Positions 21,276 through 50,759 of a stretch of DNA of 64,000 nt are shown here, piece by piece. The position numbers and the translations under genes were made by a program. The number at the start of each line of letters is the position of its first letter. Within the stretch, counting starts at the first letter, position 1. Origin of the DNA: Alphaproteobacteria bacterium (GTDB lineage Bacteria; Pseudomonadota; Alphaproteobacteria; Rhizobiales; Xanthobacteraceae). The notes under the pieces were generated by a model. It was not told where the DNA came from, did no database searches, and saw only the letters and a program-made list of their open reading frames with translations. Where the stretch lies: the NCBI GenBank assembly GCA_005884765.1, contig VAZV01000133.1:1-64000 (forward strand). The letters are read 5' to 3'.

Positions 21276-21331
21276 CCACAACTCCTCGAACCGACTGCCG
21301 TGTCAGCAGGTTTCATGCACGCCACGGACAT

Positions 21332-34074: not shown

Positions 34075-34215
34075 ATGGACTGTCGGTGGGAAGCCATTTT
34101 TGCGCGCGCGGACCGGAGGTTCCCCCATGGCGACTTGCCGGAGGCCATGGCGGTCGGAATGACGTGGGACCAGCTCAACATAGCGAACCGACTATTGCAA
34201 AAGATCACGGCATGA
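34075..34215 (+). CDS. Small protein (46 residues) coupled to a glycosyltransferase
   Basis: Forty-six residues beginning MDCRWEAIFARADRRFP and ending with a likely amphipathic helix, WDQLNIANRLLQKITA. GGAG is seven bases before the ATG, and the stop overlaps the next start as ATGA (34212-34215), the usual arrangement for translational coupling. By my count about three quarters of third codon positions are G or C although the surrounding DNA is AT-richer, which favours coding. No family recognised, no membrane segment. It may be a partner or a leader of the transferase. Confidence 0.55.
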   Translation: MDCRWEAIFARADRRFPHGDLPEAMAVGMTWDQLNIANRLLQKITA

Positions 34216-35222: not shown

Positions 35223-35310
35223 GCCAGTAGCCGCCGCAGGCCCCAAGCGAGGGCTCGTTAACCGGAACGGCTCAAAAACATAATGGCGACGGAAAGTGAT
35301 CTTCCGCAAC

Positions 35311-36645
35311 TCAAAGGATCTCGGACAACAACTCCTGTTCGTGTTGTTTTACACGAAACTGGATGGCATCGAGGTTCTGCCGAATGATCGCCCGATAATG
35401 CTCTTTGTTTTTCAGTAGTTCGGCGAGGTGCATCTCCAGCAGATCGAGGTCAAGATTTTCCACGGATTGGCAGAATTCTCCAACGCCGAGATCGGTCATT
35501 ACTGCGTCGTTCTTTGCCTCATACCCGATGGAGATCGTCGGTCGAGCAAGCTTTAATGCGCAAACGACGTTGTGAAAGCGCGTGGCGACAACGATGTCAG
35601 TGTCGCTGATTTGCTGCATTACATCGTGCAGGGAGCTGATTGGCTCCGTGATAAGCTGTTGGGCCTTTGGAGGGGCCAGGACGCCGTCAATCAGCTCATA
35701 TCCGCTCGCTTTGGCAATACGACCGATATCCCTCACTGCCCGCGCATCCACGGTTTCGCCGGTCAAAAGGCGTACTCGGTAGCCGCGGTCAAGCAACGAG
35801 TTGACGAAACGTCCGATCCTCTCAATGTAGGTTCGATAGATCTTAGGGTCCGACCCCGAGTTGTGGCCTGCGCGCCAGCCATTATAATTCATAAGGCCGA
35901 CGCCAATCGTTATCAGCTTTTCTTGCGTCCCGTCCCGCTTTGGCAACGGTGTTGGTAATTTGAATACGAGATCTGGGTAGACTTGGTCACTACTTGTATC
36001 GATGCCAAGTGATGCCAAGAAATCCTTGGATACCTGGTCACGGAACGAACGGAAGCCTGCCCAAGCCGCTGCAGACCTTAACATCCAGCGACTGACAGGA
36101 TGCAGGATCGGACCGGCGCCGGTTCCAACAAAGCAGAACTTCACCCCGCACAGTCGCGCAGCTGCGGCCCAGCGGAATAGGCCGTAGGATGTTCCCCACG
36201 GACCTGAGCCGTAGTCGTTCAAGGTGGATGTGCCCGGCACAATCACGATGTCGAATTGCCGGACATGTTTGATTGCGCGGCGCCAGTTCGCCAGCCTTCC
36301 AAGCATTCTCAGGCTGAGTTTATTGCAGAACCTCAGGAAGGCATTGGAAAATTCCGGGGCGCTGATTGGCGTTGTGGCAATCTGATGCGCTTGTCCTATT
36401 GCAGCAGGATCAACGCAAACACATGAGATATGCGCATCGGGCCGCGCTTCCCGCAAAAAAAGCAAAAACGATTCGAGCGATGCGTCGTTGCCGAAATTGC
36501 CTCCGCCGAACATTCCAAAAAGGCATATTTTACGAGGCCGCACGCGGCTGTCTGCCCAATTGTCACTGTGGGTTTCTGTAGACGGCGAGGCGTCAATTGC
36601 CTTGGCTATTCCGTCTCTGGCTCGATGTACGCTGGATTGAATCAT
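35311..36645 (-). CDS. Polysaccharide pyruvyl transferase family protein
   Basis: 444 residues of the PS_pyruv_trans family. The N-terminal nucleotide-like loop is CLFGMFGGGNFGNDASLESFL (spanning about 42-62), with FDIVIVPGTSTLNDYG and FCFVGTGAGPILHP in the middle and TDIVVATRFHNVVCALKL (about 356-373) in the second half, where Arg and His are the conserved pair. The family transfers pyruvate from phosphoenolpyruvate as a ketal to hexoses (ExoV-type), giving an acidic polymer. A GTG at 36660 would add five residues; neither start has a strong ribosome site. It is convergent with the GT2 gene. Confidence 0.85.
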   Translation of the reverse strand: MIQSSVHRARDGIAKAIDASPSTETHSDNWADSRVRPRKICLFGMFGGGNFGNDASLESFLLFLREARPDAHISCVCVDPAAIGQAHQIATTPISAPEFSNAFLRFCNKLSLRMLGRLANWRRAIKHVRQFDIVIVPGTSTLNDYGSGPWGTSYGLFRWAAAARLCGVKFCFVGTGAGPILHPVSRWMLRSAAAWAGFRSFRDQVSKDFLASLGIDTSSDQVYPDLVFKLPTPLPKRDGTQEKLITIGVGLMNYNGWRAGHNSGSDPKIYRTYIERIGRFVNSLLDRGYRVRLLTGETVDARAVRDIGRIAKASGYELIDGVLAPPKAQQLITEPISSLHDVMQQISDTDIVVATRFHNVVCALKLARPTISIGYEAKNDAVMTDLGVGEFCQSVENLDLDLLEMHLAELLKNKEHYRAIIRQNLDAIQFRVKQHEQELLSEIL

Positions 36646-37000
36646 GAGATAAAATATCACACGAGAAGGAAACTCGAAATCGTTATCGCCCCCGAACGGC
36701 CGGACCAGTCAGGGACTGTGAACCGCGATGAACTCGCGAGGTCAGATTCTGATACGCTGGTTTACAGGACTGGGCAATGGGGGCAAACGAGGCGTGGGTC
36801 CAGAAAGCATTATGACAAAACTGCATCCGCTCGATGAGAGTTAACCGTAAACCGATTAACCAAAATCTGGGTGCTGCAGTATTTTGTTCGGCTGGTCTTC
36901 GCTCTTGAATTTCCCGGGGGCGAAGCGCCAAGTCCTCACAATGGGTCGACGCATTCCAACGACCTACTTTGAAAAGCGCGGTTTGCTGCTCTAACAACCA
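36646..37000. other. Intergenic region upstream of the flippase
   Basis: Two TTAACC hexamers lie at 36841-36846 and 36856-36861, 15 bases apart and about 150 bases before the flippase start. The 114-codon minus frame at 36683-37027 has no family pattern. No other feature seen. Confidence 0.35.
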
Positions 37001-38506
37001 ATGAAATCCTTGAAGCCTCAAACACACAATATCAAAGGCCGCACCGCTGCCGGTGCGACCATTATGATTGCTTCGCGGTTGATTACGCGCTGCATCGATT
37101 TTGCAGCACTGATCGTTCTCGCGCGCCTCTTATCGCCGGAAGATTTTGGACTCGTTGCAATCGCGATGTCGGTTATCATGATTGTCGAAGCAATCATGGA
37201 ACTGCCGTTGGGATACGCACTTGTCGCGTTGCAGACGCGGACAAAGTCCCACTACGATACCGTCTTCACGCTTCAACTCCTGAGGGGATCAGGGCTTGCC
37301 GTAATCCTGCTGATTTCGGCTTGGCCGCTTTCGCAGCTATATAGTGACCACAGATTGATCTGGCTTATCTGTGCGCTCAGCATCGCGCCGGCATCGCGCG
37401 GTCTCAGCAGTCCTCGCATTATTGAATTCTCGATCGCCTTTGAGTTTTGGCCCAATCTCATAATGGAGGTCACAGGCAAGCTGACTGCTCTTGCATTGTC
37501 GGTCGGTTCAGCGTGGTTGACCAGAAGCTATTGGTCCCTTGCGATTGGCACAATCGCTGCTCCGGTCACTATGTTCGTCGTCTCTTATATTTATGCCCCG
37601 TTTCTACCGGCTATCTCGCTTCGAAAATGGCGCGATTTCGCCGGATATGTTGGTTGGAACACATTTGGACAGACCATAAGGGCGCTGGTCTGGCAAATGG
37701 ATTCGTTGATGCTCGGCCGCTTCGTGAATCGCTTCGAGCTCGGCGGCTTTTCGATGGCTGCAAACCTTGCGGCGCTCCCTGGGCAGATATTCGTCGATCA
37801 GATGATGAACCCCCTTTTAGTGGCTTTCTCTTCGGTCCGGGAAGATACACGAAGATTGACAACGGCCTATCAGAAGAGCGGCATCAGCATCGTCGCGCTT
37901 GGCCTTCCGATCATGATAGGGATGAGCACGAACGCCGAACCGATACTCCGGCTTGCTTTCGGGGAAAAATGGTTAGCGGCGGCACCCATTTTGCGATGGC
38001 TTTGCTGGGCGATCATTCCCTCGTTCTTTACGGCTCCTTTCGCAGCGCTTGCGATCTCTCTTGAGAGGCCTCGACTGATTACTCGGCTTGTCGCTAGCGA
38101 ATTTCTCGTCAGGCTTCCTCTTATGTTCTTTGGGATCTTGTACTATGGGATTGCAGGGGCCGTAGCAGCTCGTCTGGTAACCGGCTTTGCGATTGCGGGA
38201 TATGCAATGCTGTCTGTGCGCGAATTGATTGGGTTGCGCGTCAGAGATCAACTGCTCGGTGCATGGCGGCCAATGACTAGCGTCGCCATTATGGCAGCCA
38301 CGATTGCGCCACTGGAAATATCCCCGGGGGACGTATCGGGATATTACCAACTCATACTCCGGCTTGCGATCATCGTGGGTGTCGGTGCGGCTGCTTATGC
38401 AAGCTCAATGTTCTTGCTGTGGCGCCTTGTTGGTCGTCCGGATGGACTTGAATCCCATATTGCAAGGCTGCTGGCCGTCGGTGTGCGGAGAGTTCGCAGG
38501 GTTTAG
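37001..38506 (+). CDS. Wzx-type oligosaccharide flippase
   Basis: 501 residues with 12-14 predicted membrane helices, of the polysaccharide transport (MATE/MVF-like) superfamily. The N terminus GATIMIASRLITRCIDFAAL, and LLSPEDFGLVAIAMSVIMI and GRFVNRFELGGFSMAANLAA further on, are typical of the WzxC/lipopolysaccharide biosynthesis group. It turns undecaprenyl-linked repeat units from the cytoplasmic to the periplasmic leaflet, delivering them to Wzy. Length is normal for the group. No strong ribosome site was found before the ATG. Confidence 0.9.
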   Translation: MKSLKPQTHNIKGRTAAGATIMIASRLITRCIDFAALIVLARLLSPEDFGLVAIAMSVIMIVEAIMELPLGYALVALQTRTKSHYDTVFTLQLLRGSGLAVILLISAWPLSQLYSDHRLIWLICALSIAPASRGLSSPRIIEFSIAFEFWPNLIMEVTGKLTALALSVGSAWLTRSYWSLAIGTIAAPVTMFVVSYIYAPFLPAISLRKWRDFAGYVGWNTFGQTIRALVWQMDSLMLGRFVNRFELGGFSMAANLAALPGQIFVDQMMNPLLVAFSSVREDTRRLTTAYQKSGISIVALGLPIMIGMSTNAEPILRLAFGEKWLAAAPILRWLCWAIIPSFFTAPFAALAISLERPRLITRLVASEFLVRLPLMFFGILYYGIAGAVAARLVTGFAIAGYAMLSVRELIGLRVRDQLLGAWRPMTSVAIMAATIAPLEISPGDVSGYYQLILRLAIIVGVGAAAYASSMFLLWRLVGRPDGLESHIARLLAVGVRRVRRV

Positions 38507-38693
38507 GTGGCGGCCTCGTGAGCTTAACCGCTTTCACGGAAGATCCAAGGGTTGAACAGTTCGGCGTTGATTGACCCGTTCAGGTACTGATCCGAAACTT
38601 GGATCGAACGTCCAATTCAGTGAGTGGGAAATAAGCGTTCGAATATGTACATTTTGATGAGTACCAGCATGGCGCGTGAAAGCCCGGGCGGCT

Positions 38694-40133
38694 ATGATTA
38701 GTCGCAGGACCTTCTATCTCAGCGTGGCGGCGGGCGTCTCCGCTTTGGCGGGAGGCAGTGTCTTTTTCCGCTTCTTGCGCAGGGGAGAAGCGCAGCCAGA
38801 GGCGGGAAACTGCTTGCCCATTGCATCAAAAGCAGACGTGACAAAGTGGAAGTCGATTGAGCAGCAAAGTGTGGCGACCACCGTGTTCCCGCTGCATCCG
38901 GTCGAAGGACAGCGCTACCTTGTGGATGCTTTGGGGCAGCCGTTCCTGATTGTCGGGGATAGCGCGTGGTCGCTGTTAACACAACTCACGACTGAAGACG
39001 CCGAGCTTTATCTTAACGATCGTCAGGCCAAAGGCTTCAACACGGTGCTCGTCAATCTGCTCGAGCATAAGTTTGCCAACGGCGCCCCCAGAAATGTATA
39101 TGGCGACGGGCCGTTCAAGCAGGATGGGGACTTCTCGACAACGAACGATCGTTATTTTGATCACGCCGAACGTGTCTTGCGCGACGCCGTTCAGAAGGGC
39201 TTCCTCGTGCTCCTGGCGCCGGCCTACACCGGGGCCGGAGGCGGTGATGAGGGCTGGTATCGCGAGATGAAGGCGTGCGGCCCGGATAAATTGCGGGACT
39301 TTGGCCGCTACGTGGGCAAACGCTTCAAGGATTTCAAAAACATCATTTGGGTCAATGTCGGCGATTATAATCCGCCAAATAAGAAGCTTAGTGAGGCGGT
39401 GGTCGAAGGGATCCGAGAGATATTACCTGATTCCCTTCATACTGCGCATAATGGCCCTGGTATGCATGGTCTGGGATACTGGAGCGCCAGCGAGATACCG
39501 ATTGCTATCGATACACTTTACACTTATGCGCCCGTTGCAGCAGAAGCTTTGCTGCTGGCTGAAAATCGAAAAACGCCATACTTCCTGATCGAAAGCGCGT
39601 ACGAAAACGAGGGCGATGGAACGCCGTTGAGGACCAGAATTCAGGCATGGCAAGCCGTGCTTTCTGGGGCCGCCGGTCAAGTCTTCGGCAACAACCCCAT
39701 CTGGTATTTCAACGCATCGGCAGTCAAATCGCAGCCAATGCAATGGAAGGCGGCGCTAAACAGTCCTGGCACGCTCGGTGTGAGCCATTTGCGGAATTTT
39801 CTTTTGTCGTTGCCCTGGTTCGCCCTGGAACCGGATAGGGATCAACACCTGCTCGTTGGCGGCGCGCTTCACGGACACTTTCAGGCGGTGGCGGCATACT
39901 CGCCCGATGGAAAATTTGGGATCGTTTATCTGCCATCTCCTCGCCCGTTCGCCATCGATATGAAGCAGTTTGCCGGCGACCACGTGGCGGCGCGCTGGTT
40001 TGACCCGGCAGATGGCCGGTTCTTGAACTCAGACCCCGAACATCTACGGGCATCCGGGCGACAGGAATTCACCGTCCCCGGTTGCAGCCGCGATGGCGAT
40101 TGGGTGTTGTTGCTTTCCGCTATCGCGGCGTAG
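38694..40133 (+). CDS. Tat-exported DUF4038-type glycoside hydrolase
   Basis: 479 residues. The start MISRRTFYLSVAAGVSALAG is a twin-arginine signal (SRRTFYL), so a folded protein is exported. The DUF4038 (apiosidase-like) domain covers about 80-370: FLIVGDSAWSLLTQLT, LNDRQAKGFNTVLVNLL, YVGKRFKDFKNIIWVNVGDYN, YFLIESAYENE, with acidic residues GDY and ES in the TIM-barrel active-site positions. A small C-terminal beta-domain follows (DGKFGIVYLPSPRPF, ARWFDPADGRF). Related enzymes split terminal apiose or similar sugars; the substrate here is probably the locus product. The start follows an 18-codon frame that overlaps it. Confidence 0.82.
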   Translation: MISRRTFYLSVAAGVSALAGGSVFFRFLRRGEAQPEAGNCLPIASKADVTKWKSIEQQSVATTVFPLHPVEGQRYLVDALGQPFLIVGDSAWSLLTQLTTEDAELYLNDRQAKGFNTVLVNLLEHKFANGAPRNVYGDGPFKQDGDFSTTNDRYFDHAERVLRDAVQKGFLVLLAPAYTGAGGGDEGWYREMKACGPDKLRDFGRYVGKRFKDFKNIIWVNVGDYNPPNKKLSEAVVEGIREILPDSLHTAHNGPGMHGLGYWSASEIPIAIDTLYTYAPVAAEALLLAENRKTPYFLIESAYENEGDGTPLRTRIQAWQAVLSGAAGQVFGNNPIWYFNASAVKSQPMQWKAALNSPGTLGVSHLRNFLLSLPWFALEPDRDQHLLVGGALHGHFQAVAAYSPDGKFGIVYLPSPRPFAIDMKQFAGDHVAARWFDPADGRFLNSDPEHLRASGRQEFTVPGCSRDGDWVLLLSAIAA

Positions 40134-40350
40134 GGGATGGGCCGTGCATTCGGGGTGTCGGGCCAGACTTTTAGTCGTCGGCAAGGGCTGCGGTGAACGA
40201 ACTATCGAAAGTCACCCAGTCCGCTGAACCCATTTTGTGGAGCGGCTCGATACGCCATTCCGAGTGAGGATACGCGCTATCTCGTGACGGGAAAACTCAG
40301 TCCAGATAGGAAAAACGCCTTAAGGTGCAGCCAAGCGCAATGGGCGCATC

Positions 40351-41688
40351 TCAGTTAAATTTCCTAAACACGGGCTTGACCGGGCGACCAACCAGGAAAT
40401 TTTCGACTCCGTTCTCCAGTGCCCGCCTGTACACCTGAAGTGACTCGCCGATCGCCTCGATGGTTCGATCGATGTCTGCGTCGGTATGAGAAAAGCTCAC
40501 AACCAAGGAAGGGGTCAGCAAGCCTCGTTGAATCATTTCCTGAAGGAAAAGCGTTCTGAACGGCTGTGAAGGCTGCTTCGATTGATCGCGTGTTGCGAAG
40601 ACCAGGTTTGAGGGGCGGCCGAGCAATTGGAAGTAATCGCCGAGGCCAAGCGATTCGATCACGCGATCGACTCCGGTTCGCAACCTCTCCCCCTGCCGAT
40701 GCATAAATTCAATCACGTTATCCCGACGATAGATCTGCATCGTTTCGATGGCTGCAGCGAGTGAGTGGTTTTCCGCGCCGTGCGTCGTAGACAGCAAAAA
40801 GACGCGCTCTCGGTCGTGGTGTAAACCACCCAGTTCCATAATTTCTTTTTTGCCCGCCAAAGCTGAAACTGAGAAGCCATTCCCCATGCCTTTGCCGAAG
40901 GTCGAAAGATCCGGCGAAATCCCGTATACTTTTTGCGCGCCACCAATGTGCCAGCGAAACCCGGTGATCATCTCATCGAGAACAAATACAGCACCTTCGC
41001 TACGGCATAGCATTTGAACTGAGCGGAGAAAGTCAGCTTTTGGCTCTACCGCCGTCGCAGCTTCGAGAATAACACAAGCAATTCGGCCGGGATTTTGTTC
41101 GAAAAGTAATCGCAGGCTCTCAATGTCATTGTATCGAAACTGAAGGGTCAGCTCTTGCACGGCTTTCGGAATGCCTGCCGACATTGGAGTGGTTCCGATG
41201 AACCAATCTTCGACGGAAAAAAATGGTTGATCGGCGCATCGAGCAATCAGGTCGCGCCCCGTGTAGGCCCGCGCCAATTTCACGGCAGCACTGGTCGCGT
41301 CCGATCCATTTTTGGCGAACTTGACCATATCAGCGCCATCGATCAGACGGAGAAATTCTTCGGCGCAGTCCAACTCGATCGCAGCCGGCCGCGTATAGTT
41401 TTCTCCAAGAAGCATCTGGCGATGGGCAGCTTCCACAACTGGCCGATGGGCGTGGCCTAGAGTAACGGCACGCAAACCCATGCCATATTCAATGAACTCG
41501 TTTCCATCGACATCCCAGACATGACACCCTTCGCCCCGCCTCAGGAACCCGGGGGCTAACAGCGGATATTGATCGTCCCCTTTGGCATAGGTATGGGCTC
41601 CCCCTGGAATTACAGAATGAGCCCGGGTTCGCATGTCGGACGACCTTTGGAAGGTCCGCGAATTGAGTTGCTTAGTTGGCGAGTTCAA
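40351..41688 (-). CDS. Class III aminotransferase, glutamate-1-semialdehyde aminomutase type
   Basis: 445 residues of PLP fold type I, closest in pattern to HemL: VIPGGAHTYAKGDDQYP, DVDGNEFIEYGMGLRAV, VKFAKNGSDATSAAVKLAR, FVLDEMITGFRWH and STFGKGMGNGFSVSAL with the PLP lysine. HemL itself acts in tetrapyrrole synthesis; paralogues of this type appear in sugar clusters where they aminate a keto sugar or an acyclic precursor. Position next to the SDR and methyltransferase points to such a role. The TTG at 41688 is the longest start; an ATG at 41634 is an alternative. Confidence 0.8.
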   Translation of the reverse strand: MNSPTKQLNSRTFQRSSDMRTRAHSVIPGGAHTYAKGDDQYPLLAPGFLRRGEGCHVWDVDGNEFIEYGMGLRAVTLGHAHRPVVEAAHRQMLLGENYTRPAAIELDCAEEFLRLIDGADMVKFAKNGSDATSAAVKLARAYTGRDLIARCADQPFFSVEDWFIGTTPMSAGIPKAVQELTLQFRYNDIESLRLLFEQNPGRIACVILEAATAVEPKADFLRSVQMLCRSEGAVFVLDEMITGFRWHIGGAQKVYGISPDLSTFGKGMGNGFSVSALAGKKEIMELGGLHHDRERVFLLSTTHGAENHSLAAAIETMQIYRRDNVIEFMHRQGERLRTGVDRVIESLGLGDYFQLLGRPSNLVFATRDQSKQPSQPFRTLFLQEMIQRGLLTPSLVVSFSHTDADIDRTIEAIGESLQVYRRALENGVENFLVGRPVKPVFRKFN

Positions 41689-41973
41689 GCAAATAGCTCT
41701 ACATTTATTTCATTACGGCTTTGAAGCCGGGCACACTTTTTAAGCATCTGTGCCGGCGGCGCCTCTAACTCTAAAAGCTAGACCAGATCAGCGCTGATAC
41801 CAAGCTAAAACGCAGAACTTGAAAATGTAACGTTAAGATGGATTATGCTCTAGAGTAGGCCTGCAACCAAGCGCGCCATTAACCTGAACGGCACACAAGA
41901 TACAATCGGGTTCAGAGACGGCGTAAGGAGTTATGTCGGAATTCCGATCCGTAATCGTTAGAGGTAAACGCCT

Positions 41974-43020
41974 TTGAAAATTCTCATTACCGGAAATATG
42001 GGCTATGTCGGTCCGGCGGTCGGGAAATATTTGCGTGCGCGACGACCGGACGCCACGTTGCATGCGTTTGACAATGCCTATTTTGCGCATTGCTTGACCG
42101 GCGCGCCCGTTCTTCCCGAACGCTATCTGGACGAGCAATTCTATGGTGACGTCCGCGACGTTTCCCTCGATTTGAGCGGATATGATGCGGTTGTCCAGTT
42201 GGCCGCCATCTCAAATGATCCGATGGGCAATCAATTCGAGGCGGTGACGCTGGATATCAACCAGAACACCACGATTTCGATCGCGAAAGCGGCTGCGGCG
42301 GCCGGCGTGAAGAATTTCGTCTTCGCATCGAGCTGCAGCGTCTACGGAATAGCCGAGGGCGCGCCGCGCAAGGAGACAGATCCGCTCAACCCGATTACGG
42401 CTTACGCGAAATCCAAGATTGGAGCTGAGCGGGAGCTTTCAACCATCGATACCAAGATGGCCATTACCAGCCTCCGTTTTGCAACGGCGTGCGGAATGTC
42501 GGATCGGCTCCGGCTCGACCTGGTCCTGAATGATTTCGTCGCATGCGCGCTTAGCAAAGGGTTGATCAGCGTACTGTCGGACGGTTCGCCGTGGCGTCCC
42601 TTGATCGATATAGCGGACATGGCCCGCGCGATTGATTGGGCGATCGATCGCCCTGCCGAGATCGGAGGGCGATACTTGGCCGTCAATGCTGGTTCGGACG
42701 ATCGTAATTATCAGGTCAAGGATCTCGCCAACGCGGTCGCCAAGAGCGTTCCGGGCACGGAAGTATCAATCAACACTTCCGCTCCGGTCGATAGCCGTTC
42801 CTACAAGGTGGATTTCGGGCTGTATCGTTCCCTCGCGCCCAATCATCAGCCCGTCGTGAGCCTTGACCAATCGATCCAGAACCTGATCGCCGGCTTGAAG
42901 AGAATGAATTTCAAGGATGCCGATTTTCGCTCGTCCGGTCTGATGCGCCTCAGGGTACTGCAAGATCACATCGATAATCGACGGCTCAACCGCTCCCTGC
43001 AGTGGCTCAAGTTACCTTGA
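41974..43020 (+). CDS. NAD-dependent epimerase/dehydratase (extended SDR)
   Basis: 348 residues. NAD-binding TGNMGYVGPAVGKYL starts the protein; SSCSVYG carries the Ser and TAYAKSKIGAE the Tyr-Lys pair. The C-terminal substrate part contains SDGSPWRPLIDIADMARAI, typical of nucleotide-sugar enzymes. It would oxidise, epimerise or reduce a nucleotide-linked hexose. It uses a TTG start with GAGG ten bases upstream, and TTAACC lies 95 bases before the start. First gene of the plus-strand run to 48000. The exact reaction cannot be told. Confidence 0.85.
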   Translation: MKILITGNMGYVGPAVGKYLRARRPDATLHAFDNAYFAHCLTGAPVLPERYLDEQFYGDVRDVSLDLSGYDAVVQLAAISNDPMGNQFEAVTLDINQNTTISIAKAAAAAGVKNFVFASSCSVYGIAEGAPRKETDPLNPITAYAKSKIGAERELSTIDTKMAITSLRFATACGMSDRLRLDLVLNDFVACALSKGLISVLSDGSPWRPLIDIADMARAIDWAIDRPAEIGGRYLAVNAGSDDRNYQVKDLANAVAKSVPGTEVSINTSAPVDSRSYKVDFGLYRSLAPNHQPVVSLDQSIQNLIAGLKRMNFKDADFRSSGLMRLRVLQDHIDNRRLNRSLQWLKLP

Positions 43021-43568
43021 TCTCTTGCGACCGCATGCGGTGCAAGGGCGCTGGCCACGTCTTATAAATGTGGCTCAGCCGGATGCAGGCTGACGGAGGC
43101 ATTACTCGGCGCTCGACCATTTCTTCGGACACTTGCCGGTCCCGCAAAGGCTCCGTATTTGGAGGCCAACAGTGCGCCGTCTTTCATCGATCGGCTGAAG
43201 AAAAATACTCCTTAACGACATCGGACTTGTAGCCGAACCACAGCAGGAAATCACGATGCCATGCGGGCTGCAAAAGTGCACAATATATGCCAAATTGCCG
43301 GCTTGGAATGCCCTCCGATGGGGGTCCCGAGACCGCCGGAAAACGAGACGGCCTTCATTGGCCGGAGCGCTTAATAATTGATGGCCAACATGGTTTATTG
43401 CCAAAGTTTGTCGCTGGAAACGAACGGAGGCGGGCTATTTCGGCGATATCGTAAACGTCGCAGATTCAGCATAAACCAATTGCGCTGATGTGGTTTGCAT
43501 TGGTCCAAGATAATAATCGGGATATCGAATATAACCAGACATGTGGCGTGAAATACGAGGGAGTAACG
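43021..43568. other. Intergenic stretch within the sugar cassette
   Basis: About 550 bases without a recognised gene. A 35-codon plus frame beginning near 43380 (MANMVYCQS) lacks a clear ribosome site. The gap is unusually long between genes that should work together, so a lost gene is possible, but I can see no remnant. Confidence 0.35.
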
Positions 43569-44828
43569 ATGAACATTAGCTTCCCGGCAGCGCACGGCGT
43601 TGCACCAAAGTGCCGTCATTGCGGCCATGAACTCACGCTCAAGCTTATCGATCTCGGGCTCTCACCGGTCGCCAACGACTATGTCGATCCCGAAAACTAC
43701 ACCAAGGCCGAACCGTTCTATCCACTGGAGGCGCTGGTCTGCCGCGAATGCCGCCTGGTGCAGACACGGGATTTGCTGGCCGCCTCGGACATCTTTCGTG
43801 CCGACTACGCCTATTTCTCCTCGCACTCGACCTCGTGGCTGGACCACGCTAGCTCGTATGTCGATGATATGGCCACGCGATTCAATCTGGACTCCAGCTC
43901 GCGACATGTCGAAATCGCGTCGAACGACGGTTACCTGCTGCAGTACTCACTGAAGAAGCAGATCAAGTGCCTGGGCATTGAGCCCTGCGAAAGCGTTGCG
44001 CTGGCCGCGCGCAAGAGAGGAATCGAGACTCGTATTGAATTCTTCGGTCGTGAGTATGCCAGAAAACTGCTGCATGAGGGATGGGCGGCCGATCTCCTCA
44101 CAGCCAACAATGTGTTGGCGCATGTCCCGGACATCAATGATTTCGTCGGCGGCGTCAAGATATTGCTCGCCGCAGAGGGGGTGGCGACATTTGAGGTGCA
44201 ACATCTGCTGACGCTGATGCAGCGTCACCAGTTCGATACGATCTATCATGAGCATTATTCCTATCTGTCCTTGATTGCCGGCCAGCGGATATTCGCCAAG
44301 GCCGGCTTGCGTGTGTTCGACGTCGAACTGCCGGAGACGCACGGCGGGTCGATACGATTTTTTGTTTGCCACGAGCAGTCCCCTCGTCCTGACAGTCCGC
44401 GAGTGGAGGAAGTCCTGGCGAAGGAGCGCGCCTACGGTCTCGACCGTGATGCCGTCTACGCAGCCTGGAACGAGTCGGTGAAGGAGACGAAGCGTAGCCT
44501 TCTTGAGCTGCTTGTGCCGCTGAAGCGCGAAGGTAAGACCATCGTCGGTTACGGAGCTCCAGCCAAATCCGTGACCCTGTTGAACTTCTGCGGAGTCGCG
44601 AGGGATTTCCTCGATTTTACCGTCGATCGCGCCCCGTCAAAGCAGGGCCGTTACCTTCCCGGCGCCCGCATTCCCATTTTACCGCCGGAGGCGATTTTCG
44701 AGGCGAAACCAGACTACGTTCTAATTCTGCCGTGGAATATCAAGGACGAGATCAAAACGCAGATGGAGGGAATCCGATCTTGGGGCGGACGCTTCATCGT
44801 CCCCGTTCCAAAGGCGACCATTGAATAA
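43569..44828 (+). CDS. SAM-dependent sugar C-methyltransferase
   Basis: 419 residues, three-part layout of the TylC3/NovU-like C-methyltransferases. A zinc-binding head has CRHCGHEL and CRECRLVQ; the SAM domain shows HVEIASNDGYLLQ and LTANNVLAHVPD; the C-terminal domain holds VGYGAPAKSVTLLNFCG and YVLILPWNIKDEI. These enzymes add a methyl group to C3 or C5 of a 4-keto nucleotide sugar, giving branched sugars. GAGGGAG lies before the ATG at 43569; the frame opens earlier at 43488. It is followed closely by the RmlC-like gene. Confidence 0.9.
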   Translation: MNISFPAAHGVAPKCRHCGHELTLKLIDLGLSPVANDYVDPENYTKAEPFYPLEALVCRECRLVQTRDLLAASDIFRADYAYFSSHSTSWLDHASSYVDDMATRFNLDSSSRHVEIASNDGYLLQYSLKKQIKCLGIEPCESVALAARKRGIETRIEFFGREYARKLLHEGWAADLLTANNVLAHVPDINDFVGGVKILLAAEGVATFEVQHLLTLMQRHQFDTIYHEHYSYLSLIAGQRIFAKAGLRVFDVELPETHGGSIRFFVCHEQSPRPDSPRVEEVLAKERAYGLDRDAVYAAWNESVKETKRSLLELLVPLKREGKTIVGYGAPAKSVTLLNFCGVARDFLDFTVDRAPSKQGRYLPGARIPILPPEAIFEAKPDYVLILPWNIKDEIKTQMEGIRSWGGRFIVPVPKATIE

Positions 44829-44949
44829 CTTGCGAACAGGTCCGGCTATACGGTCGGGCAGTTCCGATTTCGGCGGGATTGATACTGCGCGCGGCATGCC
44901 AGACGGCACGACCGATCGGCGGCGGTTCAGTCCAGGAGGATATTCTGCC

Positions 44950-45492
44950 GTGAAGTTCGTTCCTCTTGGTAATTCGGATGCGCGACTGATTGAATTGGTC
45001 GTACAGGGAGACACGCGCGGCAATTTCACCAGAACCTGGTGCGCGGCGAGCTTTGCAGAGCACGGAATCGACTTCACGCCGGTTCAGGGCAACAGTTCGT
45101 TGACGCGCAAGCGCGGAAGCGTTCGCGGAATGCATTTCCAGCGCGCGCCGAAAGCCGATGCAAAGATTGTCCGATGTACATCGGGTAAGATCTACGATGT
45201 CATTGTCGACGTGAGGCCGACGTCTCCCACGCGGGGGCAAGTCTTTGTCAACGAGTTAGCACCGTCCTCGGCCAGCATGCTCTATATTCCGGCGGGCTTC
45301 GCCCACGGATTCCAGACGCTGGCGGATGACTCGGTGGTGGAATACCTGATGGGAATAGAATATGTCGCGGGTCTGTCGGACGGCTTTCGCTACGACGATC
45401 CCACGATTGGTATTGTGTGGCCTGAACCTGTATCGGTGTTGTCGGACAAGGATGCTGCCTGGCCGCTGCTCGTGGATCGCAAGCTATGGTAA
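44950..45492 (+). CDS. dTDP-4-dehydrorhamnose 3,5-epimerase-like protein
   Basis: 180 residues, the usual RmlC length. The cupin marks are VQGNSSLTRKRGSVRGMHF (with His), IVRCTSGKIYDVIVDVRP and YIPAGFAHGFQTLADD. RmlC-type enzymes epimerise C3 and/or C5 of 4-keto-6-deoxy sugars; here the substrate is probably a CDP- or dTDP-linked keto sugar shared with the methyltransferase. I used the GTG at 44950 because AGGAGG sits ten bases before it and the family normally begins there. A TTG at 44821 overlapping the previous gene would add 43 poorly conserved-looking residues. Confidence 0.85.
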   Translation: MKFVPLGNSDARLIELVVQGDTRGNFTRTWCAASFAEHGIDFTPVQGNSSLTRKRGSVRGMHFQRAPKADAKIVRCTSGKIYDVIVDVRPTSPTRGQVFVNELAPSSASMLYIPAGFAHGFQTLADDSVVEYLMGIEYVAGLSDGFRYDDPTIGIVWPEPVSVLSDKDAAWPLLVDRKLW

Positions 45493-46823
45493 GCGCCGAC
45501 AGGGTCCGGATGCCGGACGCAAAAGAATTTCCGGCTTCGGACGAATCGCCGTCGCTCGACCTGCATGGCCTGGTCAAGGAGCTGTTTCCGATCAACCGAA
45601 GTCTCACCGGTTCGGGGGTCCGGCAAACCCTGGCGATCATTGCCCGGTACATTGATCTGGAGATCCATGAAGTCAAAACCGGGACCGCGGTGCTCGACTG
45701 GCATGTGCCGATGGAATGGAACATTCGCAGCGGCACGATTACGAGCATGGTCGGACAGCGTCTCGTCGACTTCGCCGCAAACAATCTTCACATCCTGGGC
45801 TACAGCAAGCCAGTGCAGGGAGTGTTCAGCCGCGCCGAGCTCGCCCAGCATGTCCATACGCTGCCCGACCAACCGGACCTCATCCCATATCGGACCGGGT
45901 ATTATGCCGACGATTGGGGCTTCTGCATGTCGCACAATCTCTGGCAATCGATGCAGGACGACTACTATCGCGTCGAAATCGACAGCGATATTTCGCCGGG
46001 ATCGCTCACCTACGGCGAGCTCTTTCTTCCCGGTGAAACGTCGGACGAGGTGCTGATTACCTGTCACATCTGCCACCCGAGTCTCGCCAACGACAATCTT
46101 TCGGGAATTGCGGTCATGACCGCGCTGGCGATGCGGCAGGCCGGTCGAAGACGGCGGCTCGGCTATCGCTTTCTCTTTCTTCCGGCAACGATCGGAGCGA
46201 TCACGTGGCTTGCCCGCAACGAGGCCCGTCTCGACAGGATTAAACATGGCCTGGTCCTGACCTGCCTAGGCGATCCTGCCCGGTTTCACTACAAGCAAAG
46301 CCGCAGCGGAGCGACTATCGATCGCGCCGTGGCCCATGTGCTGCGTCATTCCGGCCACTCATACGAAATTTTGCCGTTCAACCCGTACGGATACGATGAA
46401 CGGCAATTCTGTTCTCCGGATTTCGATCTGCCGGTCGGCTGCCTGATGCGCAGCGTGCACGGTACTTTCCCGGAATATCACACCTCGGCAGACAACCTGG
46501 ATTTAGTCAAGCCTGAAGCGCTCGGACAATCCTACGCAACGATCGGGGCGATCTTCGACTTGCTCGATAATAACCGCACCTATCGACGTGTCGACGGACG
46601 GGGTGAACCTCAGTTGGGCCGGCGCGGGCTTTACCGGGCCATCGCGGGGCAGCGCGAGGCTGGTGGTGCCACGCAGATGGACCTGCTGTGGTTCCTCAAT
46701 CTAGCCGATGGCAACCATAGCCTGCTGGATATGGCGGTTCGCGCCGATGTTCCGTTCTTTCGACTCGAAGCTGCCGCGCGCCTTGCACTAGAGGCGTCGC
46801 TCGTCGGAGAAACCGCCCGATGA
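45486..46823 (+). CDS. DUF4910 aminopeptidase-like protein
   Basis: 445 residues of the DUF4910 family: a DUF2172-like part, a zinc peptidase M28-like core and a C-terminal winged helix. Visible are ELFPINRSLTGSGVRQTL, YGELFLPGETSDEVLITCH, the metal site CHICHPSLANDNLSG and EYHTSADNLDLVKPE. Its catalytic role is not established, yet the gene turns up repeatedly within nucleotide-sugar clusters, suggesting deacylation or a step on an aminated sugar. It overlaps the epimerase gene by seven bases, so coupling is likely. The final 60 residues (LNLADGNHSLLDMAVRAD) form the winged helix. Confidence 0.82.
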   Translation: MVSADRVRMPDAKEFPASDESPSLDLHGLVKELFPINRSLTGSGVRQTLAIIARYIDLEIHEVKTGTAVLDWHVPMEWNIRSGTITSMVGQRLVDFAANNLHILGYSKPVQGVFSRAELAQHVHTLPDQPDLIPYRTGYYADDWGFCMSHNLWQSMQDDYYRVEIDSDISPGSLTYGELFLPGETSDEVLITCHICHPSLANDNLSGIAVMTALAMRQAGRRRRLGYRFLFLPATIGAITWLARNEARLDRIKHGLVLTCLGDPARFHYKQSRSGATIDRAVAHVLRHSGHSYEILPFNPYGYDERQFCSPDFDLPVGCLMRSVHGTFPEYHTSADNLDLVKPEALGQSYATIGAIFDLLDNNRTYRRVDGRGEPQLGRRGLYRAIAGQREAGGATQMDLLWFLNLADGNHSLLDMAVRADVPFFRLEAAARLALEASLVGETAR

Positions 46824-46854: not shown

Positions 46855-48000
46855 ATGAGTACCGATTTCCAGACGATGAAAATTCCGGAGAGCGACAACA
46901 AGCCCGCTGGAAACGAGATCAATCCTGTCGGTGGCACGATCCAAAGCTTGCAGCATTTGCGAGTCCTCGCCGCGTCGATGATCGTGCTTTATCACACCGA
47001 GCTACAGATCATGCGGCTGACGGACGGGCAACATACCCATTCGCTCGGTTACGGCGCGGCAGGAACCGATTTGTTCTTTGTAATCGGCGGCTTTATTCTG
47101 GTGTACACAAGCTACGATCGGAAAGATACGTTCGGCGCGTTTCTGTACCGTCGCATCATGCGCATCGCGCCGCTCTACTGGCTGTTCACATTTCTCATGC
47201 TGACCGTGCTGCTCGTCGCCCCAAGTCATCTGCTGACGACAAAAATCGAATTTTGGCATTTTATTCTCTCGCTCGTGTTCATTCCGTATCCCCATCCGGT
47301 TCTCGGGATCGATCGGCCGTTTCTGTTTGCGGGTTGGGTGCTCAACCATTTTGTATTCTTCTATCTGTTGTTCGGCGCGCTGTTGTTCCTGCCGATCGGG
47401 CGGCGTGTCCTTGCCGCGGGCGCGGTGCTATGCGCGTTGATGGCACTGAAATTCTTGTTTGCAGGCGAAAGCAACCTGCTCGACTTCTATGGCGCGACGG
47501 TCGCGCTGGATTTCGTGCTGGGAATGATCGTGGCCTGGCTATTCCTTGAACGACGGGCGTCACCTGTGATGATCGTCGCGGTATTCCTCACCGGCGCGTC
47601 GATTTTTGCCGCTGGCGTCGTGGAGGGCGTTTCAGACGGGAGTGAACGGGCGCTTTATTGGGGTGTAGCCGACGCGTCTCTGCTGTTTGTATGCGTGTTC
47701 AGAGAGAAGCAATGGGGCTGGCCGAAGTGGCGCTTTCTCAGCGCGCTGGGCGATGCGTCGTATTCGGTATTCGTGTCCCATCTGTTCACGCTCGCATTGG
47801 TGACGAGCATCATGCGTGCGCTTGGAATATTTCCAATGCTGGGCGTTTGGGGCGCGAGAATCGTCTTTCTCGGAGCCGCCTGGACGCTGGGAATGGTGGT
47901 CTACACGGCAATCGAGCGACCTTTGATGCGGCGCATCGGCCAGCAGAGGAGCGCGCGGCCGATCGGATCGAGCAAGCTGATTGTTGCGAAGGGATCTTGA
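46855..48000 (+). CDS. Acyltransferase 3 family membrane protein
   Basis: 381 residues with about ten membrane helices. Family motifs are SLQHLRVLAASMIVLYHTEL (with the conserved His), GTDLFFVIGGFILVY and YRRIMRIAPLYWLF. It would O-acylate a sugar of the exported polymer from the cytoplasmic side. AGGGAG precedes the ATG. It closes the plus-strand cassette after DUF4910. It is the second acyltransferase of the locus (other at 27295), so two different acyl decorations are possible. Confidence 0.88.
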   Translation: MSTDFQTMKIPESDNKPAGNEINPVGGTIQSLQHLRVLAASMIVLYHTELQIMRLTDGQHTHSLGYGAAGTDLFFVIGGFILVYTSYDRKDTFGAFLYRRIMRIAPLYWLFTFLMLTVLLVAPSHLLTTKIEFWHFILSLVFIPYPHPVLGIDRPFLFAGWVLNHFVFFYLLFGALLFLPIGRRVLAAGAVLCALMALKFLFAGESNLLDFYGATVALDFVLGMIVAWLFLERRASPVMIVAVFLTGASIFAAGVVEGVSDGSERALYWGVADASLLFVCVFREKQWGWPKWRFLSALGDASYSVFVSHLFTLALVTSIMRALGIFPMLGVWGARIVFLGAAWTLGMVVYTAIERPLMRRIGQQRSARPIGSSKLIVAKGS

Positions 48001-48096: not shown

Positions 48097-49509
48097 CTAA
48101 TGCGAAGCCGGCACGTCCACTATGGATAAATTCTCACTTGCGCCTTGAACGATCTTGACTATCTCGTTGGCCCGAGCGGGATGGAGTTCTACAAGACGTC
48201 GCAGGTAGGTGGCGATCAATGCAGGCTCACCACGCGGTACATCGTGAATAGCCTCAGATGCGTGCAAGTAGCAACTGCTGGGATCACGCTCCAGCTCTTT
48301 GGGAAACAATGCAACTAGCTTGGTGCCTGACGGCGCGGGCAGTTCTGGAATTGCCGCTCCTGTAAGGAAAGCTACGAGCGCCCCGCAGACATCATGTCCA
48401 AAGAGTTTACCGAGATGACAACTACCTACACAACGTGGGTTCATTTCTATGAGTGCGGCTCGATCCTCCTCTTCGTCAATCATAAAATCGTAGCTGACGA
48501 AGCCCGAACATCCGAGTGCTGCGGTCATCACAACTGCAATTTCATCCATCTCACGATTATTGACTAGGCGCACGACAGTGCTCGCACCAGTCGGTTCAGG
48601 ATGGACGCATTCCGCAGCGAAGCTTACCCCCGCTATTACCTGGCCGTTCCAAGCCGCTACGGTGCGAAACGCGGGTATGCCCCGCGCGCACGACTGTATC
48701 AAAATGCTGTTTTCAGACCCAAGGTGAAAACCGGCCATCGCGCACAAAAAACGCTTTACCTGTCCAATGAAGCGTCGCCGTAGACCGACCGAAAGCTTGG
48801 CTTGGAGCTGCTTTCGCAACTCAGCAGTGTCGGGAACCATCGTCACTCCATCGCCGCCACAGGAGTGCTCCGTCTTGAGGAACAAAGGTAAATCCCAATT
48901 TTCCGGAACGGCTGGGAAATCGGTAACTGCGTCCGCCTGTAGATGATACGGCTTCCGGACGCCAAGCCGTGAGGCAACATCCATAAGCTCTCGCCGGCTT
49001 ACCACCGCTTTGTATCCGCTGGGTGATCCAAAAGAGTTAACAAGTAAATCACGGAGCAATTGGCTCACCGAGGATTTGGTGGCCAGACTACGCAGCAGCC
49101 AAGCGGCTATGTCGTCGAGAGGAACTACAAGTGTGGGTTGCCAATCGCGAGCGATGGATTCCAGTCGTCTCCGAACCAACAGCGCGTGAAGCCAAACGCT
49201 TGGAAGCGTCGGAAGTGAAAAGTGTTGCGCGAGTGCTGTTGTTTGGGTGCAATAATAATCCGGAGGACTGAGGAGGGCACAAACGGCGCCGTGATCAGCG
49301 ATCTCGGCAATCACACGCTCGATCCCGACGTTGTTGACCAAGGCAACAAAGAGTATCCGGAGCTTTGATTGATCCGGCGGCCGACTTGGTCTCGCAAGTT
49401 CTAATGGAGACGCCGTGAAATCGATCTCAGGACCGTACGATCGAGCCCGTAATAAGTCGGTTTCTATGAATCCATTGCCCTTAAAAGCCGGATTGATCTC
49501 CTGGCTCAC
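48097..49509 (-). CDS. ATP-grasp family carboxylate ligase
   Basis: 470 residues with the three ATP-grasp parts. The N-terminal part has RILFVALVNNVGIERVIAEI; the ATP lid is LFLKTEHSCGGDGVTMVPD (about 203-221); the Mg site is YDFMIDEEEDRAALIEMNPR (about 340-360). ATP-grasp enzymes join a carboxylate, through an acyl phosphate, to an amine, thiol or other nucleophile. The substrate is unknown. Its start overlaps the stop of the monooxygenase at 49506 by four bases (ATGA), so the pair is translationally coupled. The carboxyl acceptor could be an amino acid or a polymer uronic acid; it is not one of the known purine or glutathione enzymes. Confidence 0.82.
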   Translation of the reverse strand: MSQEINPAFKGNGFIETDLLRARSYGPEIDFTASPLELARPSRPPDQSKLRILFVALVNNVGIERVIAEIADHGAVCALLSPPDYYCTQTTALAQHFSLPTLPSVWLHALLVRRRLESIARDWQPTLVVPLDDIAAWLLRSLATKSSVSQLLRDLLVNSFGSPSGYKAVVSRRELMDVASRLGVRKPYHLQADAVTDFPAVPENWDLPLFLKTEHSCGGDGVTMVPDTAELRKQLQAKLSVGLRRRFIGQVKRFLCAMAGFHLGSENSILIQSCARGIPAFRTVAAWNGQVIAGVSFAAECVHPEPTGASTVVRLVNNREMDEIAVVMTAALGCSGFVSYDFMIDEEEDRAALIEMNPRCVGSCHLGKLFGHDVCGALVAFLTGAAIPELPAPSGTKLVALFPKELERDPSSCYLHASEAIHDVPRGEPALIATYLRRLVELHPARANEIVKIVQGASENLSIVDVPASH

Positions 49510-50759
49510 TGCATCTGCCTTTGTGCCTCGACATTTGAATTCAGCTTCGCCGCAAGAACGGTACTTCGCGGCGACCGGCCGACGAGGTGCTGAGAAAGCC
49601 GGCGAGACGTGAAAGCAGCTCCATGAGCAAAACGCATCATTGGGCCAAAGCTATTCGCTGCAGCCGTCCCCACAAAGTACAAGTCAGGCACGCTGGACTC
49701 AAAGTTGCGGGACAAGGCGGGAGCCCCGGCGGCGCGTTTCAGGCGCGACCTAATACCCTCTCCGAGAAAGATCAGCCTATCCAAATCCACGCGATACCCT
49801 GTTGCGGCGACAACGTGGTCGGCAAAGACCTCACGGGTTTGTCCTTCGGCTTGCCGGATCAAGAGGCGCACACGCCCATCTTTGACGGAAGCCTCGGCGA
49901 CGCTTGAGCCCGTGATGTAGGGAACATGACCTTCAATCTGCTCCCGCACGAACCAGGCCGGCGCCGGTCCGAGATATCGGCGTACCACGTCGACGCGAAA
50001 CGCTTCCGGCATAGCGTGAAAGACCATGGGAGCCCGGACGCAAAGTACGGATTTCCATCCCGGCCCAAGAGGCGTCATTGGCGCAACGATCTTCTCATAT
50101 ACCGAGCGTGCGCCTAGAGGGGATTGGAAGCGGATACCCTGACGTCGGGTCATGACGCTAGGAGTGGCTCCTCGCGCCCTTAGGAGTGCTGCGATGTCCA
50201 TCGCGGACGCGCCAGCTCCGACTACAATGACGTCTCGCCCGGAAAGATGGTGGGCATCGCCGTAGGCGACGCTATGCGTGAGTAACTCGGGCGGGAGACC
50301 GCGGAGCTCTGCAGGAATGTAATCGAACGACCGGATTCCGGAGGCGACGACGACCCGGCGCGCGGCGACAACCTCTTCGTTTTCCAGGACCAAATCGAAC
50401 CCATGAGGCGCGGGCTCGACCGAGACAACCATTTTGCGCTCAAGATCCGGTACGAATCTTCGCTGAAATGCTTCGCCATATGAGATAAATGTGTCCACAT
50501 CGACGGGAAGGCCGGTGTGAGCGTAGGAGATATGATTCTTTGAACAATATGCCTTGAGCGTATATTCGCGTCCAGGATCCGAAAGGTTGGAAGCAAATCC
50601 CTCAGACTTTAACTTCATCCCGTTCGGCATCGACTCGCGCCAAGCCTGCATCGGGTGACCGAAAATGCGGACACCCACGCCGCGTGCGAGAAGGTGGCTG
50701 GCCAGTGACAATCCGTAGGGCCCCGCCCCGATGACGGCAATATCAGCAACGCGCCCCAT
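49506..50759 (-). CDS. Flavin-dependent monooxygenase-type oxidoreductase
   Basis: 417 residues. The FAD motif VIGAGPYGLSLASHLL starts at about residue 8; a second, NADPH-type Rossmann motif VIVVGAGASAMDIAALL lies near 177; and AATGYRVDLDRL near 315 marks the class B flavin monooxygenase family (FMO, lysine/ornithine N-hydroxylases, Baeyer-Villiger enzymes). It could hydroxylate a nitrogen or sulfur or convert a ketone. It is the upstream gene of the coupled pair with the ATP-grasp ligase, so both probably act on one small molecule. No clear ribosome site stands out before the ATG. Confidence 0.82.
   Translation of the reverse strand: MGRVADIAVIGAGPYGLSLASHLLARGVGVRIFGHPMQAWRESMPNGMKLKSEGFASNLSDPGREYTLKAYCSKNHISYAHTGLPVDVDTFISYGEAFQRRFVPDLERKMVVSVEPAPHGFDLVLENEEVVAARRVVVASGIRSFDYIPAELRGLPPELLTHSVAYGDAHHLSGRDVIVVGAGASAMDIAALLRARGATPSVMTRRQGIRFQSPLGARSVYEKIVAPMTPLGPGWKSVLCVRAPMVFHAMPEAFRVDVVRRYLGPAPAWFVREQIEGHVPYITGSSVAEASVKDGRVRLLIRQAEGQTREVFADHVVAATGYRVDLDRLIFLGEGIRSRLKRAAGAPALSRNFESSVPDLYFVGTAAANSFGPMMRFAHGAAFTSRRLSQHLVGRSPRSTVLAAKLNSNVEAQRQMQ

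What the first reader, a model, noticed from the sequence alone, without database searches (positions are those of the whole stretch)
48097..50759. Coupled ATP-grasp ligase and flavin monooxygenase: possible small biosynthetic unit
Seen: genes overlap by ATGA (49506-49509); the ligase has a complete ATP lid and Mg site; the oxidoreductase has two Rossmann motifs and the ATGY mark of class B monooxygenases. Known: ATP-grasp enzymes form amides or esters, FMO-type enzymes hydroxylate amines or ketones. A two-gene ligase and oxygenase pair inside an exopolysaccharide locus fits either decoration of a uronic acid by an amide-linked, N-oxidised group, or an independent small metabolite. I know of no described system with this pair.
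Basis: partly seen in the sequence, partly recalled or inferred. Interest (0 to 1): 0.6.

Follow-up and report, generated by a model that had tools for sequence, protein, structure and literature searches.

The report
Conserved N-oxygenase and amide-ligase gene pair
Two overlapping genes in a soil bacterium's surface-sugar locus encode an oxygen-adding flavoprotein and an ATP-driven bond-making enzyme that keep company in distant bacteria, which points to an unknown oxidised amino-acid-like decoration or metabolite.

Summary
The pair is real. Oxygenase (49506-50759, -) and ATP-grasp ligase (48097-49509, -) overlap by 4 bases, GTGA rather than ATGA. Among the 80 best oxygenase relatives kept, 51 have an ATP-grasp at +/-1 and two more are adjacent across a spurious ORF: 53 of 80, in three arrangements. 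Elsewhere (positions 2-8) ATP-grasps are 8 of 756 genes, those two included. One genome fuses both. In 11 acidobacterial loci MetY-like and homoserine-acyltransferase genes follow the oxygenase instead, with an AMP-binding enzyme next in the one scanned; a planctomycete has an NRPS; 15 show no such partner beside it. Partner distances co-vary (r 0.69-0.71). By fold the oxygenase is closest to amine N-hydroxylases. No NCBIfam cut-off was reached. Best reading: N-oxygenation plus amide ligation of an amino-acid-like group, probably on a surface glycan; substrates unknown. Against obligate coupling: 7 of 8 other genomes with the ligase in the order sample lack the oxygenase nearby. A proposed ATP-grasp/N-hydroxylase pairing exists in pseudouridimycin biosynthesis (PMC10127198).

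The parts
49506..50759 (-). Flavin-dependent N-hydroxylating-monooxygenase-like protein, 417 aa (Pyr_redox_3 / Lys_Orn_oxgnase)
   Evidence: (PF13434 45.1 bits, cut-off 21.3)
48097..49509 (-). ATP-grasp carboxylate ligase, 470 aa from a GTG start; conserved core begins near residue 48
49506..49509 (-). 4-base overlap GTGA (stop TGA of the oxygenase, start GTG of the ligase)
   Evidence: a 4-base overlap (gap -3) also in L055, L056, L118, L119, L130, L131
40351..41688 (-). Class-III aminotransferase, glutamate-1-semialdehyde aminomutase-like (PRK06209); wider cassette, also near the pair in L131
41974..43020 (+). NAD-dependent sugar epimerase/dehydratase; wider cassette (L059, L129, L131)
43488..44828 (+). 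Sugar C-methyltransferase (Methyltransf_13/14); wider cassette (L059, L088, L129, L131)
44821..45492 (+). RmlC-type 3,5-epimerase; wider cassette (L059, L088, L129, L131)
45486..46823 (+). DUF4910/DUF2172 aminopeptidase-like protein; wider cassette (L059, L088)
46855..48000 (+). Membrane acyltransferase 3 next to the pair
   Evidence: only weakly enriched near the oxygenase elsewhere (7 of 429 genes at positions 1-3 against 4 of 545 at 4-10)

Best explanation
The pair is a two-enzyme module. The flavoprotein uses NAD(P)H and O2 to hydroxylate a nitrogen of an amino-acid-like substrate (inferred from fold and motifs). The ATP-grasp enzyme activates a carboxylate as acyl phosphate and joins it to an amine, forming an amide (inferred from the superfamily). 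Together they make and attach an N-oxidised aminoacyl-type group (N-hydroxy amine or hydroxamate), here most likely onto a sugar of the surface polysaccharide built by the surrounding locus, whose own cassette may provide a C-methylated, possibly aminated sugar. Shown: adjacency, one fusion, partner replacement, co-variation, fold class, polysaccharide setting. Inferred: N as the oxidation site, order of steps, glycan as the acceptor.
For: Adjacency in 53 of 80 relatives in three gene orders; 51 of 157 genes at +/-1 are ATP-grasps against 8 of 756 at positions 2-8. ATP-grasp and oxygenase fused in L051. Oxygenase and ligase distances correlate, r 0.687 for 46 pairs and 0.705 for 70, none of 1000 permutations as high. 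Where the ATP-grasp is not adjacent, other amino-acid-handling enzymes can stand in: MetY-like + homoserine acyltransferase in 11 of 80 loci, followed by an AMP-binding enzyme in L069; an NRPS with condensation and thioesterase domains in L060. Full-length fold matches to N-hydroxylases: PvdA Z 33.9, rmsd 2.7, 363 aligned; KtzI 33.0; SsDesB 32.9; putrescine N-hydroxylase 32.4, ahead of YpdA 30.6 (310 aligned) and a small FMO 30.4 (323 aligned). PF13434 over its cut-off. Profile match to six bradyrhizobial PvdA-like proteins, E 1.4e-22 over 338 columns. Glycan setting: window, L032, L033, L035; glycosyltransferase families lead the Pfam tally of 128 of 228 neighbour proteins, the first with 8 members. 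Parts of the window's sugar cassette near the oxygenase in 4 loci.
Against: The conserved LKD motif of the PvdA-like proteins (K68/D69 in A7) falls in a gap of the profile alignment, so the substrate pocket differs. SidA-type N-hydroxylases (Z 30.4 and lower) are tied with YpdA in the fold comparison. Sequence profiles against PDB rank ferredoxin-NADP/thioredoxin-reductase types first, though over the dinucleotide-binding parts. 7 of 8 other genomes with a window-type ligase in the order sample lack the oxygenase within about 1.5 kb. 15 of the 80 oxygenases show no ATP-grasp, MetY/acyltransferase or NRPS next to them, several on contigs that end close by. The sugar cassette recurs in only 4 of the loci compared. 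No assay, no metabolite.
Confidence: 0.45

Rival explanations
1. Same two-enzyme chemistry, but the product is a free small metabolite (an N-oxidised dipeptide or amide, exported), and the polysaccharide locus is only where the module tends to land.
For: NRPS with thioesterase as neighbour in L060; thioesterase domain fused to the ATP-grasp in L118 and L129; AMP-binding, TPP-enzyme and P450 genes in L069; Methylobacillus copy among an adenylyltransferase-like gene, an EamA-type transporter and oxygenase-like genes (names read from sequence, not scanned); pseudouridimycin precedent.
Against: Glycosyltransferase, flippase, Wzy and export neighbours and parts of the shared sugar cassette in 4 loci.
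Confidence: 0.3
2. The flavoprotein is not a monooxygenase but an NAD(P)H-dependent reductase or oxidase of the YpdA / ferredoxin-NADP reductase kind working in the same pathway.
For: Best NCBIfam match is YpdA (63.7 bits, far under the 339.9 cut-off); sequence-profile PDB hits are led by reductases; YpdA fold Z 30.6.
Against: PvdA, KtzI, DesB-type N-hydroxylases align over about 50 more residues and at higher Z; PF13434 passes its cut-off; no reductase family cut-off is met among the families shown.
Confidence: 0.15
3. The genes are neighbours by chance or only because polysaccharide loci are crowded with ATP-grasps.
For: The ligase subfamily also occurs without the oxygenase.
Against: 51 of 157 genes at +/-1 against 8 of 756 at positions 2-8; natural fusion; co-variation.
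Confidence: 0.02

Closest known systems
Pseudouridimycin biosynthesis: ATP-grasp ligase PumK and N-hydroxylating flavoenzyme PumE (PMC10127198, passages read; these two roles are proposed there)
   Same: An ATP-grasp amide ligase and a flavin N-hydroxylase are proposed to act one after the other on an aminoacyl amide.
   Different: Nucleoside antibiotic in Streptomyces, not a polysaccharide-linked pair; homology of PumE/PumK to these proteins was not tested.
Predicted amino-acid ligation onto cell-surface sugars with a Rossmann-fold monooxygenase (PMC2922099, passages)
   Same: Predicted logic: a monooxygenated aminoacyl group joined to a cell-surface sugar.
   Different: There the activating enzyme is a seryl-tRNA-synthetase paralogue with an acyl carrier protein; here an ATP-grasp. 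Homology of the oxygenases not tested.
Ornithine/diamine N-hydroxylases (PvdA, KtzI, SidA, DesB, DfoA)
   Same: Full-length fold, GxGP and ATGY motifs, PF13434.
   Different: 15-20% identity to the rows of these enzymes; the LKD motif falls in a gap. Siderophore genes were not searched for.
ATP-grasp carboxylate ligases: CPS/PurK type, PylC, L-amino acid ligases BacD and RizA
   Same: Fold (PurK Z 23.6, CPS-type 23.4, PylC 21.6, BacD 20.0) and ATP/Mg residues.
   Different: 9-16% identity to the 50 chains listed; no match in PDB by single-sequence search at E 0.1; substrates unknown.

Membership tests
ATP-grasp superfamily | Pfam ATP-grasp model over its cut-off | tested here: met
   PF02655 25.2 bits, cut-off 23.2; PF02786 21.5, cut-off 19.8
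ATP-grasp superfamily | ATP-grasp fold and Mg/ATP residues | tested here: met
   Z 23.6 to PurK, 23.4 to a CPS-type protein; K212, D341, E355, N357 conserved in at least 42 of 43; roles of these residues recalled
ATP-grasp superfamily | Carboxylate-amine ligase activity | not testable with these tools
   needs an assay
Class B N-hydroxylating monooxygenases (PF13434) | Pfam model over its cut-off | tested here: met
   45.1 bits against 21.3, profile positions 2-215 of 339; Pyr_redox_3 scores higher (61.9)
Class B N-hydroxylating monooxygenases (PF13434) | Full-length fold match | tested here: met
   PvdA Z 33.9, rmsd 2.7, 363 of 417 residues aligned
Class B N-hydroxylating monooxygenases (PF13434) | ATGY motif and two dinucleotide-binding motifs | tested here: met
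   meaning of the motif recalled
Class B N-hydroxylating monooxygenases (PF13434) | NAD(P)H-dependent N-hydroxylation | not testable with these tools
   needs an assay
Ornithine/lysine N-hydroxylases (PvdA/SidA subgroup) | Substrate-site LKD motif (K68/D69 in A7) | tested here: not met
   falls in a gap of the profile alignment; substrate role recalled. The protein is said to work like, not to be a member of, this subgroup
Baeyer-Villiger / class B FMO | FxGxxxHxxxW-type fingerprint (recalled) | tested here: not met
   residues up to the invariant H162 read P156-P-E-L-L-T-H162; no F or G at the required places
YpdA bacillithiol disulfide reductase | TIGR04018 over its cut-off | tested here: not met
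   63.7 bits against 339.9
ArsO monooxygenase | NF040505 over its cut-off | tested here: not met
   45 bits against 425
PumK/PumE-type pair | Homology to PumK and PumE | not tested
   their sequences were not fetched

The most novel reading that the evidence does not exclude
A mobile module of one N-oxygenase lineage with exchangeable amide-forming partners (several unlike ATP-grasps, thioesterase-ATP-grasp fusions, AMP-ligase with a homoserine-derived amino acid, NRPS) that puts N-oxidised amino-acid groups, possibly metal-binding hydroxamates, on bacterial surface polysaccharides, a decoration for which my searches turned up no report.
Probability: 0.18. Interest if true: 0.8.

Novelty: new variant of a known kind. 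Interest (0 to 1): 0.5.

Why it matters
No NCBIfam model reaches its cut-off on either protein, yet oxygenases of this lineage were found in four phyla, in three of them beside an ATP-grasp. If the reading holds, it defines a way to put N-oxidised amino-acid groups on surface glycans or into small metabolites, and gives a ready set of paired enzymes with different ligases to compare. It is directly testable in Bradyrhizobium sp. BTAi1, whose oxygenase is 64-66% identical and has the same 4-base overlap with its ligase.

Tried and rejected
Looked for named relatives of the ligase in genome contigs with the single sequence: none confirmed; the allowed second scan used the oxygenase alignment instead. 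The lysine K51 of the oxygenase (78 of 78 in A5; 15 K and 6 R of 21 in A1) was considered as the counterpart of the ornithine-hydroxylase substrate lysine; the profile alignment puts the latter in a gap, so dropped. Acyltransferase 3 and FemAB/GNAT genes as constant partners: only weak enrichment (FemAB-type 7 of 545 at positions 1-4, 2 of 429 at 5-10). A defence role: no PADLOC match. Chance adjacency: rejected. Single-sequence PDB search with the oxygenase gave 8 weak hits, the first a fungal-type flavin monooxygenase 8z16/8z12 (DiatB; E 1.6e-5; 'fungal' recalled), not followed. The label 'thioesterase fusion' in the tree was given by length; the domain was seen in L118 and L129, not in L133, and L119 and L131 were not scanned. 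L051 and L052 were left out of that tree.

Literature: (ATP-grasp with flavin-containing monooxygenase, exopolysaccharide and gene cluster; with FAD-dependent and O-antigen; with N-hydroxylase and gene neighborhood) found 0 papers; one search found 3 and one search found 1 (listings only, not read; among them a Pantoea phosphonate paper, PMC7858074, that names both ATP-grasp and flavin); some searches gave listings (3, 12 of 60, 12 of 478 and 10 of 54 seen), from which PMC10127198, PMC9113183 and PMC2922099 were read in passages. Only open-licence PMC papers are held, so absence in print is not shown.
Full report
What is there. Two minus-strand genes, oxygenase (49506-50759, 417 aa) then ligase (48097-49509, 470 aa), overlap by four bases. 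The locus around it is a polysaccharide locus: Wzz/kinase-type protein at 19017-21281, glycosyltransferases at 24574, 31470 and 34086, pyruvyl transferase at 35311, flippase-type protein at 37001, acyltransferase 3 at 27295 (3 of the 10 ORFs scanned had no match) and at 46855, and a sugar cassette at 40351-46823: class-III aminotransferase, epimerase, C-methyltransferase, RmlC, DUF4910.

What the proteins are. The ligase is an ATP-grasp protein by Pfam and by fold: its model (pLDDT 86.6) matches PurK at Z 23.6 (rmsd 3.9, 326 aligned), a CPS-type protein at 23.4, PylC at 21.6 and the amino-acid ligase BacD at 20.0. No single-sequence PDB match was found. The oxygenase model (pLDDT 93.2) matches amine N-hydroxylases best: PvdA Z 33.9 (rmsd 2.7, 363 aligned), KtzI 33.0, SsDesB 32.9, putrescine N-hydroxylase 32.4, DfoA 31.9; then YpdA 30.6 (310 aligned), tied with SidA 30.4 and small FMOs near 30. 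It passes the PF13434 cut-off, and its family profile matches six bradyrhizobial PvdA-like proteins (probability 99.5, E 1.4e-22, 338 columns). By sequence profile alone, reductases of the ferredoxin-NADP and YpdA type score higher, over the dinucleotide-binding parts. The LKD motif of the PvdA-like proteins falls in a gap. Neither protein reaches an NCBIfam cut-off in the families shown (25 of 40 shown for the oxygenase); seven further oxygenases and three further ligases did not either.

Do the genes belong together? In 197 related genomes the oxygenase occurs in 16, own included, all of the same genus (E up to 1e-15). I fetched 17 loci from the other 15: the ATP-grasp is adjacent, overlapping or fused in 13 of 17, 1.6-1.8 kb away in 2, 7.4 kb away in 1 and not seen in 1. 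Of these 80, 51 have an ATP-grasp at +/-1 (23 upstream and divergent, 20 downstream on the same strand, 8 upstream on the same strand), and L073 and L112 are adjacent across a spurious ORF, giving 53 of 80. At positions 2-8, ATP-grasps are 8 of 756 genes, those two included. In evenly drawn samples the oxygenase is rare: 3 of 397 other genomes of the phylum and 5 of 384 of the class (E up to 1e-60), 7 distinct genomes; the ligase is within 1.5 kb in 4 of 7, and in 4 of the 5 that score over 300 bits. Of 11 plasmid records with a match, 7 were opened: ATP-grasp next to the oxygenase in both Granulicella plasmids and in B. barranii, 1.9 kb away with a gene between in Mesorhizobium, and none in the stretch shown in two Streptomyces and one Deinococcus record. 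In the other direction the link is looser: a window-type ligase is in 9 of 397 genomes of the order (own included), and only the own genome and G489 have the oxygenase within about 1.5 kb.

Fusion and partner exchange. In G090 (L051) a 795-aa protein carries PylC-like N, ATP-grasp and oxygenase domains. The ATP-grasps compared are very unlike each other (14-29% identity to the window's in A2, 20 others, one of which, L004, has no oxygenase in the DNA held), while the oxygenases keep 36-47% (20 others). In L118 and L129 the ATP-grasp carries an N-terminal thioesterase domain; L133, scanned too, does not. In 11 of 80 loci, all acidobacterial, the oxygenase is followed by a MetY-like enzyme and a homoserine O-acyltransferase (Pfam on L069); three of the 11 (L075, L094, L110) also hold an ATP-grasp 2.4-7.1 kb away. 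In L069 an AMP-binding enzyme, a TPP enzyme and a P450 follow (the other ten were not scanned). In the planctomycete L060 a protein with two AMP-binding stretches, condensation and thioesterase domains is the neighbour. The remaining 15 of 80 show none of these partners beside the oxygenase; several lie on contigs that end close by, and L066 has an ATP-grasp 2.7 kb away. The partners seen activate or ligate carboxylates or make amino acids, which is why I read the oxygenase as acting on an amino-acid-like substrate. In a tree of 100 oxygenases the partner types are strongly clustered (20 changes against 48.5 shuffled), and the distances of oxygenase and ligase correlate (0.687 for 46 pairs, 0.705 for 70; none of 1000 permutations as high). 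Shared descent of the host genomes can add to that correlation.

Setting. Of 228 neighbour ORFs of suitable length within four genes of the oxygenase in 53 loci, 128 were drawn and scanned; glycosyltransferase families lead the tally, but the first has only 8 members, and 121 families in all were hit; Wzy (3), sugar transferase (2), flippase-type (2) and C-methyltransferase (2) recur. GT4-type genes are at 19 of 545 positions 1-4 and 7 of 429 positions 5-10. Parts of the window's own sugar cassette are near the oxygenase in L059 (Acidobacteriota), L088 (Alphaproteobacteria), L129 and L131 (Actinomycetota), 4 of the 104 loci L031-L134 whose ORFs were searched.

Reading and limits. I take the pair as an N-oxygenase with an amide ligase that makes an N-oxidised aminoacyl-type group, more likely for a surface glycan than for a free metabolite (0.45 against 0.30). 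Fold, motifs and neighbourhood are shown; the reaction, the substrates and the acceptor are not. The nearest described pathway is pseudouridimycin, where an ATP-grasp ligase (PumK) and an N-hydroxylating flavoenzyme (PumE) are proposed to act in succession (PMC10127198, passages). PMC2922099 (passages) predicts a related logic with a tRNA-synthetase-like activating enzyme and a monooxygenase linked to surface-saccharide genes. So the kind is known in outline and this is a new variant of it.

Noticed in passing
window 40351-46823: Aminotransferase, epimerase, C-methyltransferase, RmlC and DUF4910 genes form a sugar cassette, parts of which lie near the oxygenase in L059, L088, L129 and L131; it may make a C-methylated amino sugar.
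   Followed up: partly
L059:4933-6036, L131:18788-19774: An uncharacterised protein family, without a Pfam match in L131, lies near the oxygenase in 7 of 80 loci.
   Followed up: partly
L069:9995-19056: Acidobacterial cluster oxygenase, MetY-like, homoserine acyltransferase, AMP-binding enzyme, TPP enzyme, P450: looks like an undescribed amino-acid-derived pathway.
   Followed up: partly
L102, L154, L160: Methylobacillus copy of the oxygenase stands without an ATP-grasp, beside an adenylyltransferase-like gene and an EamA-type transporter (read from sequence).
   Followed up: no
L052:9037-10547: The second oxygenase of G077 is split into two overlapping frames: a broken copy or a sequencing error, beside a full-length ligase ORF.
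   Followed up: no
window 34001-42000: G+C is 0.53-0.55 over this part of the polysaccharide locus, against 0.58-0.62 at the window ends; may reflect horizontal origin.
   Followed up: no
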